Assembly (NCBI GenBank): GCA_913055155.1 | Contig: CAJXJR010000007.1 | Location: 62,001 to 126,000 of the forward strand | Source: an uncultured Erythrobacter sp. | GTDB lineage: Bacteria > Pseudomonadota > Alphaproteobacteria > Sphingomonadales > Sphingomonadaceae | DNA length: 64,000 nt | Direction of reading: 5' to 3' | Made by a program: the position numbers and the translations under genes | Notes under the pieces: model-generated | What the model saw: the letters and a program-made list of their open reading frames with translations, nothing else | What the model was told of the DNA's origin: nothing | Database searches by the model: none | Shown: positions 1,676 to 3,959 of the stretch, piece after piece | Layout of the letters: the number at the start of each line of letters is the position of its first letter | Position numbering within the stretch: the stretch's first letter is position 1

Positions 1676-1740
1676 CCCCGCTTACATGGCGACCCGATGC
1701 ATTGGTGACAATGCAGCAATTGGCCCTTATGTCTGCGGCG

Positions 1741-1812
1741 ATGGCCAAGCATGTGACTACCACCACCACTACTACCACCTCGGGCAACCGGGGGCGGATG
1801 GTCGTGGGTTGA
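1741..1812 (+). CDS. candidate Thr-rich leader peptide of thrS (regulatory upstream frame)
   Basis: Seen: a 23-codon frame reading MAKHV, then eight consecutive Thr codons (1756-1779; three ACT and five ACC), then [10 protein letters not shown] and a TGA at 1810. In-frame ATGs also exist at 1711 and 1729. It ends 131 bp before thrS. Known: Thr-codon runs in short leaders govern ribosome-mediated attenuation of the enterobacterial thr operon, and alphaproteobacteria use leader peptides upstream of trp genes. Inference: when charged tRNA-Thr is scarce a ribosome stalls here and changes folding of the following RNA to raise thrS expression. A poor -10-like TTATGT at 1727-1732 would make the 1741 ATG nearly leaderless; no Shine-Dalgarno sequence is obvious. 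Confidence 0.65.
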
Positions 1813-1920
1813 CGCACGAGCATCGCCACCCGGTTTCGGGTGGCGCGGCGTCCTCCCGAAATCGGCAGCAAAGTGAACGTCGCTCTTCAAGCGCGCGCAG
1901 GCTTGTGCCATGGCGCGCGC
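1778..1920 (+). promoter_or_regulatory. candidate thrS attenuator: competing hairpins after the Thr codons
   Basis: Four stems can be drawn. P: 1778-1783 with 1788-1793, capped by a GCAA tetraloop, directly after the Thr codons. Q: 1824-1832 with 1837-1845, nine perfect pairs around a four-base loop. R: 1830-1840 with 1855-1865, eleven pairs including one G-U. Q and R share 1830-1840 and exclude each other. S: 1891-1898 with 1913-1920, GC repeats. Mutually exclusive stems behind a Thr-codon run are the expected form of an attenuator. No stem is followed by a U-tract, so a classical intrinsic terminator is not evident; Rho-dependent or translational control would fit better. Confidence 0.5.
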
Positions 1921-1943
1921 ACACGCGATGGAATGATGGTGCA

Positions 1944-3959
1944 ATGACCGAACTCTTGAAAATCAGCCTGCCCGACGGATCGGTGCGCGAAATGGAACCC
2001 GGCAGCACGCCAGCGGACGTGGCCGCGGCGATCGGTCCCGGCCTTGCCAAGGCGGCGCTGGCGGCGCGCGTCGATGGCGAAGTGCGCGACCTGAACCGCC
2101 CCTTCGAAGGCGATGCCGAGCTGGCGCTGATCACCAGCCGCGACGAGGAAGAGGCGCTGGAACTGGCGCGCCACGACTATGCCCACGTGCTGGCCGAAGC
2201 GGTGCAGTCGCTGTGGCCGGGCACGCAGATCACTTTCGGCCCCGCCACCGACGATGGCTTCTATTACGACGTGAAGGCACCCGACAGCCGCGATCCGTTC
2301 TCGATGGACGACCTGCCGCAGATCGAGGAGCGTATGCGGGAGATCATCAAGGCGGACAAGCCGCTGGTGCGCGAGGTGTGGAGCCGCGAGCAGCTGATCG
2401 AAAGGTGGGAAAAGGAAGGCGAGACCTTCAAGGCCGAATGGGCGAAGGAACTGCCCGAAGACGAGGAATTGACGGTCTACTGGTCGGGCGAGCCGGGCAG
2501 CGACGGCGCGTGGCTGGACATGTGCCGCGGCCCGCACCTGGCCAGCACCGGTAAGCTCGATCCGCAGGCGTTCAAGCTGATGCGCGTGGCCGGGGCATAC
2601 TGGCGCGGCGACCAGCGCAATGCACAGCTCACTCGCATCTACGGCACCGGCTGGCTCAACAAGAAGCAGCTGAACGCGCACCTCACCCGGCTGGAAGAAG
2701 CCGCCAAGCGCGACCACCGCAAGCTGGGCCGCGAGATGGACCTGTTCCACTTGCAGGAAGAGGCGCACGGCAGCGTGTTCTGGCACCCCAACGGCTACAA
2801 GATCTGGCGCGAGCTGGAAGCCTACATGCGTCGCAAGATGGATGCAGCCGGCTATCGCGAGATCAAGACGCCGCAGGTGATGGACGCGCGCCAGTGGGAG
2901 CAGAGCGGCCACTGGGGCAAGTACCGCGAAAACATGTTCGTCATCCCCGACGAGGTGCCCAACACCGAGGACGAAGGCGAGATCGTATCCGGCGATGCCG
3001 AGTGGATGGCGCTGAAGCCGATGAACTGCCCGGCGCACGTATTGGTGTTCAAGCAGGGCATCACTTCGTACCGCGACCTGCCGATTCGCCTTGGCGAAAT
3101 GGGCTGCTGCCACCGGAACGAGCCGCACGGCGCGCTGCACGGCCTGATGCGCGTGCGCCAGTTCACGCAGGACGACGCGCATATCTTCTGCACGGAAAGC
3201 CAGGTGGTGCAGGAAGTGCGTGCCTTCATCGAGCTGGCAGACAGCATCTACAAGGACTTCGGCTTTTCCTACGCCATCAAGCTGGCGCTGCGCCCGGAGC
3301 AGCGCTTCGGCAGCGATGCGGACTGGGACAAGGCCGAGCAGGAAATGCGCGACGCCGTGGCCGAGGCGGGCATGATGAACGAGGAGTTCGGCTGGGAGGA
3401 ACTGCCCGGCGAAGGTGCCTTCTACGCGCCAAAGCTGGAATGGCACCTGACCGATGCCATCGGCCGCACCTGGCAGGTGGGCACCATCCAGGGCGACCGC
3501 GTGCTGCCCGAACGCCTCGATGCCACCTACATTGGCGAGGACGGCGAAAAGCACCGCCCGGTGATGCTGCACCGCGCGATCTTCGGTTCCTACGAACGTT
3601 TCATCGGCATCCTGATCGAACACTTTGCCGGGCGCCTGCCGGTGTGGCTGGCCCCGGTGCAGGCGGTGGTGGCCACGATCGTTTCCGATGCCGACGATTA
3701 CGCGAAAGAGACCGTGGCCAAGCTGCAGGCCGCGGGCATCCGGGTGGAGAGCGACCTGCGCAACGAGAAGATCAACTACAAGGTGCGCGAACACTCGCTG
3801 GCCAAGGTTCCGCACATGCTGGTTGTCGGCAAGCGCGAGGCCGAGGAAGGCACCGTCGCCATGCGCACGCTGGGCGAGAAGGAGCAGAAATTCCTCTCTC
3901 TCGACGAGGCGATCGCGCTGCTGAAGGCCGAAGCCACCCCGCCGGACCTGCGCGGGTAA
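1944..3959 (+). CDS. thrS: threonine--tRNA ligase
   Basis: A 671-residue class II synthetase that charges tRNA-Thr. Order: N-terminal TGS domain (about 1-65), the editing domain with HDYAH (His77, His81), the catalytic core with the MNCPAH zinc/ATP region and the [16 protein letters not shown] motif 2 block, and a C-terminal anticodon-binding domain ending near the stop. Length is normal for bacterial ThrRS. The start at 1944 ([12 protein letters not shown]) matches the family; the same frame stays open upstream to 1647 but that stretch encodes no ThrRS-like sequence. The Shine-Dalgarno sequence is weak (GGAATGATGG). A Thr-rich leader frame and competing hairpins precede it. Confidence 0.98.

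What the first reader, a model, noticed from the sequence alone, without database searches (positions are those of the whole stretch)
1711..1943. Thr-codon leader peptide and competing hairpins upstream of thrS: a candidate tRNA-Thr attenuator
Eight consecutive Thr codons in a 23-codon frame with its own stop precede threonyl-tRNA synthetase by 131 bp, and the RNA after it folds into stems that exclude each other (Q 1824-1845 versus R 1830-1865), with a GCAA-capped stem right behind the Thr run. This is the layout of ribosome-mediated attenuation, sensing the exact amino acid that the downstream enzyme charges. Thr leaders are known for the enterobacterial thr operon, not to my knowledge for thrS in this group. 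No U-tract follows, so a Rho-dependent or translational mechanism would be new. The frame choice is meaningful: the thrS frame reads the same run as His/Tyr.
Basis: partly seen in the sequence, partly recalled or inferred. Interest (0 to 1): 0.85.

Follow-up and report, generated by a model that had tools for sequence, protein, structure and literature searches.

The report
Threonine-sensing leader before thrS
A short threonine-rich leader gene and a set of competing RNA hairpins sit in front of the threonyl-tRNA synthetase gene and are conserved across many relatives, so this bacterium probably raises the enzyme when charged threonine tRNA runs short, using a switch I did not find described for this gene.

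Summary
Leader ORF 1741-1812 ([23 protein letters not shown]) ends 131 nt before thrS. A model from 27 relatives finds the element in 156 of 397 sampled family genomes at E<=0.01 (146 at E<=1e-4). All 100 fetched hits carry a Thr leader before a thrS-like start. The leader stop lies 10-14 nt before Q in 87 of 100. Folding with a ribosome at the stop gives Q+T; a ribosome on the last Thr codon favours 2:3+R and weakens T: the right direction for thrS induction. A promoter-like pair ends 6-7 nt before the leader ATG in 68 of 99, so the leader RNA is probably leaderless. Most likely: ribosome-mediated Thr attenuation. The output is open: T has no U-tract (4 or more U in a row after T in 5 of 100), and predicted thrS ribosome-site access hardly changes. 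Nine literature searches showed no thrS attenuator.

The parts
1705..1733 (+). Promoter-like P1: -35 GTGACA 1705-1710, 17-nt spacer, -10 TATGTC 1728-1733; predicted RNA 5' end at about 1741, so the leader ORF would be leaderless
   Evidence: of 99 relatives 95 pass the score (96%; shuffled 31%), and in 68 of these the -10 ends 6-7 nt before the leader ATG; distances in shuffles are flat. The generic promoter scan, with a stricter rule, finds none here.
1741..1812 (+). Leader ORF, 23 codons, [23 protein letters not shown]; Thr codons 1756-1779
   Evidence: Thr leader in 100 of 100 fetched hits (3-8 Thr in the best 8-codon window); a C-terminal RGR is common there but was not counted.
1778..1793 (+). 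Hairpin H1 (1:2), 1778-1783/1788-1793, GCAA loop; overlaps the last Thr codon
   Evidence: p=0.012: weak covariation.
1790..1831 (+). Alternative hairpin 2:3 (arms about 1790-1806 and 1815-1831), which takes the 5' arm of Q
   Evidence: MFE with the ribosome on the last Thr codon; swap test p=0.027 (weak).
1824..1845 (+). Hairpin Q (3:4), 1825-1832/1837-1844 plus C1824-G1845; 12 nt between leader stop and the 5' arm
   Evidence: p=1.9e-5.
1832..1863 (+). Hairpin R, 1832-1843/1852-1863, excludes Q and holds the 5' arm of T in its loop
   Evidence: 49 two-sided changes against 19.5 in shuffles, 0 of 500 as high; p=4e-6.
1845..1883 (+). Helix T, 1845-1851/1877-1883; starts directly after Q in 96 of 100; proposed OFF hairpin, followed by TCTTC 1884-1888
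   Evidence: p=6.5e-9.
1885..1920 (+). Conserved thrS-proximal element CTTCAAG...TGTGCCATGG with flanking GCGCGC repeats: possible second promoter (P2) or hairpin
   Evidence: a related motif in 73 of 91 relatives, 48 of them at the same offset from T; stem covariation only p=0.011. Kept in leader-less L024, L027, L029.
1944..3959 (+). thrS, threonyl-tRNA synthetase (671 aa)

Best explanation
A ribosome-mediated attenuator that senses charged tRNA-Thr and controls thrS. Transcription starts at or next to the leader ATG. With enough Thr-tRNA the ribosome reaches the stop codon, covers segments 1 and 2, and Q plus the abutting T form: OFF. With scarce Thr-tRNA it stalls late in the Thr run, covers segment 1, frees segment 2 to take the 5' arm of Q (2:3), so R forms and T is lost or weakened: thrS is read. 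Shown: leader ORF, conserved helices, covariation, exclusivity of Q with R, predicted dependence of the fold on ribosome position. Inferred: transcription start, translation of the leader, stalling, and that T stops transcription (by a U-poor, possibly factor-assisted terminator).
For: 156 of 397 family genomes match; in the own genome the only hit below E=0.1 is at thrS (the window is in the training set). All 100 fetched hits have the Thr leader before a thrS-like start, 94 of them outside the training set. Q, R, T covary, three controls do not (R on alignments not fitted to it). Stop-to-Q spacing is 10-14 nt in 87 of 100 and T starts directly after Q in 96 of 100. Folding: window at stop Q .99, T .99; on the last Thr codon Q .38, R .49, T .31; genus means over 37 genera at stop Q .83, T .70, mid-run stall 2:3 .61, T .37. 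P1 would place the 5' end at the leader ATG, as known for S. meliloti trpL (PMC7298713, passages).
Against: No canonical U-tract: a T-run of 4 or more in the 12 nt after T in 5 of 100. No match in 241 of 397 genomes. H1 and 2:3 covary weakly. In the window a mid-run stall keeps Q and T (.94.92), so only late stalls would switch it; the mean R probability under stall is .24, and T falls only from .70 to .34-.37; with no ribosome the window is in between (Q .42, T .43). On the 28-row alignment the count of two-sided changes in R (13) is nearly matched when partners are slid by +1 (12), though pairing and covariation score peak at R itself. R and T could coexist as a pseudoknot. A possible P2 downstream could bypass the switch. 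L043 keeps the leader without Q to T. No expression data.
Confidence: 0.82

Rival explanations
1. Same sensor, translational or RNA-stability output: the helices change ribosome access or mRNA decay rather than terminate transcription.
For: T lacks a U-tract in most sequences. In 9 of 100 hits with an exonuclease-like gene in between, T has other letters at the same place and its 3' arm lies against the G-rich ribosome site of that gene (my reading of the sequences printed).
Against: Predicted unpairedness of the thrS ribosome site is nearly the same (91 sequences, 36 genera: mid-run stall .483, last-Thr stall .470, stop .491; p=.67 and .0496, the latter towards a slightly more open site at stop). 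In the 9 exonuclease cases it does not change clearly either (.373.400.376).
Confidence: 0.25
2. Rho- or other factor-dependent termination after the leader stop, with Q, R and T only tuning access.
For: No U-tract; untranslated stretch of 131 nt between leader stop and thrS.
Against: The stretch is structured and conserved helix by helix, unlike an open C-rich Rho site (general knowledge).
Confidence: 0.2
3. Conserved element but not a Thr sensor: e.g. an operator bound by ThrRS as in E. coli thrS, the Thr run being incidental.
For: E. coli thrS is controlled by its own product (recalled; ThrRS self-regulation is mentioned in PMC2965389, passages).
Against: The Thr run is kept as codons with varying third positions, with start, stop and ribosome-length spacing to Q.
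Confidence: 0.06
4. Chance: a GC-rich, ACC-repeat stretch that happens to fold.
For: The Thr pattern alone is no rarer than its reversed control in this genome.
Against: Conservation in many genera, before a thrS-like start in 100 of 100 fetched hits, with covariation.
Confidence: 0.01

Closest known systems
pheST attenuator of gamma-proteobacteria; trpS and leuS attenuators of Streptomyces (PMC1262725, passages)
   Same: Leader-peptide attenuation of a synthetase gene.
   Different: Other synthetases, other groups; described there as classical attenuators. Here thrS, an extra helix layer (Q, R, T) and no U-tract in most sequences.
Thr leader of the enterobacterial thr operon (recalled; Rfam Thr_leader)
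   Same: Thr-codon leader peptide as sensor of charged tRNA-Thr.
   Different: Controls biosynthesis; Rfam gives no match in the window at gathering scores, and at E up to 10 for 1650-2050 only two hits of other families on the opposite strand (E 3.3 and 5.1).
S. meliloti trpL attenuator (PMC7298713, passages)
   Same: Alphaproteobacterial leader ORF whose RNA starts at the ATG.
   Different: Trp, biosynthetic operon trpE(G).
Small leader CDS before Caulobacter trpS (PMC4117421, passages)
   Same: Alphaproteobacterial synthetase gene with a translated upstream leader.
   Different: trpS; the passages seen describe no structural switch.
His leader peptides before hisS paralogues in bacilli (PMC2965389, passages)
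   Same: Leader-peptide control of a synthetase.
   Different: Firmicutes, His, found through intrinsic terminators.

Membership tests
Ribosome-mediated leader-peptide attenuators (broad) | Short ORF with a run of codons for the amino acid of the regulated gene | tested here: met
   Thr leader before a thrS-like start in 100 of 100 fetched hits (start found by an N-terminal motif, not by full alignment).
Ribosome-mediated leader-peptide attenuators (broad) | Mutually exclusive helices supported by covariation | tested here: met
   Q/R exclusive; Q, R, T p<1e-4, H1 and 2:3 only p=0.012 and 0.027.
Ribosome-mediated leader-peptide attenuators (broad) | Ribosome position (stalled or at stop) selects the fold | tested here: met
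   In silico only; in the window for the last-Thr stall but not for the mid-run stall.
Ribosome-mediated leader-peptide attenuators (broad) | Leader is translated and ribosomes stall on scarcity | not testable with these tools
   No expression or ribosome profiling data here.
Classical transcription attenuators with intrinsic terminator | OFF hairpin followed by a U-tract | tested here: not met
   Window: TCTTC after T. T-run of 4 or more in 5 of 100; the terminator scan finds none on the plus strand there. So not filed under this subclass.
Rfam Thr_leader (name recalled) | Match to the Rfam covariance model | tested here: not met
   no such match.
T-box | Match to the Rfam T-box model | tested here: not met
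   no such match.
E. coli-type ThrRS translational operator | tRNA-like arms that bind ThrRS over the ribosome site | not tested
   Only the stem of the thrS-proximal element was looked at.

The most novel reading that the evidence does not exclude
The leader works a switch without a U-tract terminator: Q and T stack end to end when the ribosome finishes, while on stalling R forms and T pairs into the loop of R as an H-type pseudoknot (window loops about 1, 0 and 13-15 nt; in relatives the second is 0-2 nt in 78 of 100 and the third 12-17 nt in 78 of 100). T is a modular block that can serve U-less transcription termination before thrS and, where an exonuclease-like gene lies in the unit, a block next to that gene's ribosome site.
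Probability: 0.25. Interest if true: 0.8.

Novelty: new variant of a known kind. Interest (0 to 1): 0.66.

Why it matters
It would be a Thr-tRNA sensor on thrS, a gene otherwise known (recalled) for ThrRS self-regulation in E. coli and T-boxes in Firmicutes, so a third solution for the same gene. It is present in many but not all members of one alphaproteobacterial family, which lets gain and loss of attenuation be studied in close relatives. Its output lacks the usual U-tract, so it could test how GC-rich alphaproteobacteria stop transcription in attenuators.

Tried and rejected
Rejected: chance; reading the run in the thrS frame (it gives His/Tyr; relatives keep the Thr frame and its stop); ribosome-site occlusion at thrS. 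Other genes under the same element: of 12 weak hits that I fetched, 5 were divergent thrS leaders (L234, L235, L239, L240, L241; the thrS N-terminus is visible in the printed part for 4, not for L240) and 7 looked like chance. Led nowhere: promoter and terminator scans of 1500-63700 show no excess over shuffles; the exonuclease-like protein of the insert has no match in the window's genome (an empty answer there has no positive control). Nine literature searches, open-licence papers only, listed no paper on a thrS attenuator; five papers were seen in passages only. The 2004 comparative study of proteobacterial attenuators (cited) was not looked up or read. Viral and metagenome collections were not searched.

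Full report
What is there. Leader ORF 1741-1812 has eight Thr codons at 1756-1779, and thrS starts at 1944. The region folds to -102.5 kcal/mol, z=-2.25. The Thr pattern alone is not rare in this genome (2 sites, reversed control 3), so the case rests on comparison.

Comparison. I took thrS loci from 30 of the 41 genomes searched and from 80 named contigs (the best 80 of 590). Without any RNA model, 32 of these 110 loci showed 5 or more Thr in 8 codons within 450 nt upstream; one, L058, lies in coding sequence. A covariance model from 27 of them (the window is one of the 27) found the element in 23 of 80 named loci, two weak hits (L058, L059) left out; in 12 of 24 same-genus loci, the window included; in 156 of 397 family genomes and 44 of 91 genera at E<=0.01, or 146 genomes and 39 genera if I drop from that table the ten genomes whose best E is above 1e-4; and in 106 of 297 order genomes, where the only hit outside the family (G475) is at E=0.0046 and looks like chance. 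Some of the weak hits are true (5 of 12 fetched). Named carriers include Erythrobacter, Pelagerythrobacter, Croceicoccus, Novosphingobium, Blastomonas, one Sphingopyxis and a few Sphingomonas. On a FastTree thrS tree of 110 rows (35 carriers) presence needs at least 15 changes (shuffled mean 30).

Leader and promoter. I fetched 100 hits, chosen by hand from the list to spread over genera. All 100 have a Thr leader, and a start with a thrS N-terminal motif follows: at 114-169 nt in 91, and at 629-663 nt with a gene between in 9. Six were in the training set, 94 were not. Thr codons are ACC 352, ACT 147, ACG 141, ACA 35. Upstream, a TTGACA/TATAAT-like pair passes the score in 95 of 99 and ends 6-7 nt before the leader ATG in 68 of these; in some of the others my script had taken a downstream ATG as start (my reading of the rows). 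The leader RNA would thus begin at its ATG, as in S. meliloti trpL.

Helices. Swapping one arm for that of another genus weakens Q, R and T strongly, H1 and 2:3 weakly, and three control pairings not at all (on 100; on the 94 outside training, 37 genera: Q p=1.9e-5, R 4.1e-6, T 6.5e-9, H1 .012, 2:3 .027, controls .75.65.40). On alignments not fitted to R, with the pairs taken from the window, R has 13 two-sided changes against 5.3 in shuffles (28 sequences; but 12 when partners are slid by +1) and 49 against 19.5 (slid 6-16). The latter alignment holds the window and 79 of the 100 hits: the nine with the insert, one near copy and eleven others, mostly divergent, were left out. H1, Q and T together: 131 against 38.5 on the fitted alignment (102 rows, two of them spurious), 63 against 26.7 on the unfitted one, where the outer pairs of T align poorly (50% paired). 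The leader stop lies 10-14 nt before Q in 87 of 100 and Q abuts T in 96 of 100: spacing expected for a terminating ribosome (general knowledge).

Switching. With the RNA under and behind a ribosome removed, the window folds to Q .99 and T .99 at the stop, and to Q .38, R .49, T .31 on the last Thr codon; a mid-run stall leaves Q and T (.94.92), and with no ribosome Q is .42 and T .43. Genus means (37 genera, 100 sequences): stop Q .83, R .06, T .70; mid-run stall Q .22, R .24, T .37, 2:3 .61; last-Thr stall Q .51, R .24, T .34, 2:3 .33; free Q .57, T .46. So T falls when the ribosome stalls, the direction wanted for thrS, though by about half on average.

Output. After T comes mostly CTTC, not a U-run: longest T-run 4 or more in 5 of 100, although L191 and L154 have six and five. 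The thrS ribosome site is about equally open in both states (91 sequences). I therefore favour a transcription stop at T by a U-poor or assisted terminator, at moderate confidence. CTTC also begins a conserved thrS-proximal element that some leader-less relatives keep, perhaps a second promoter; part of the CTTC signal may belong to it. In nine hits (L125-L128, L144-L147, L190) an exonuclease-like gene (Rv2179c-like for the one protein scanned, below the Pfam cut-off) lies between, and by my reading T has different letters there and ends right before that gene's ribosome site, which again speaks for T as a functional part. R and T could also form together as a pseudoknot, so their exclusion is not proven.

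Known or new. Leader-peptide attenuation of synthetase genes is known: pheST, trpS and leuS, hisS in bacilli, a leader CDS before Caulobacter trpS; all seen as passages. Rfam has no matching family. Nine searches of open-licence papers listed no thrS attenuator; most subscription papers are not covered. I rate it a new variant: known sensor principle, new target gene, probably leaderless leader, layered helices and no U-tract.

Noticed in passing
L125, L126, L127, L128, L144, L145, L146, L147, L190: A 3'-5' exonuclease-like gene (about 163-169 aa) lies between the Thr attenuator and thrS; T has other letters there and lies against the gene's ribosome site. No match to the L127 protein in the window's genome.
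   Followed up: partly
window 1885-1920: Conserved CTTC...TGTGCCATGG element between T and thrS, also in relatives without the leader (L024, L027, L029): possible second promoter or hairpin.
   Followed up: partly
L014, L015, L017, L019, L020, L022, L026, L031 (last 60 nt before thrS): Same-genus genomes without the leader share CTTGGCG...CTAGGTG or TTAGGTG ending about 7-8 nt before the thrS ATG, so thrS itself may be leaderless there.
   Followed up: no
L043 about 1396-1475: A MAG keeps the Thr leader and H1 but lacks Q, R and T: a possible decaying or assembly-truncated copy.
   Followed up: no
L052, L071, L078, L088, L110, L112, L115 (Sphingopyxis), last 80 nt before thrS: Leader-less Sphingopyxis share an inverted repeat CCTTGCC...GGCAAAGG over the presumed thrS promoter.
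   Followed up: no
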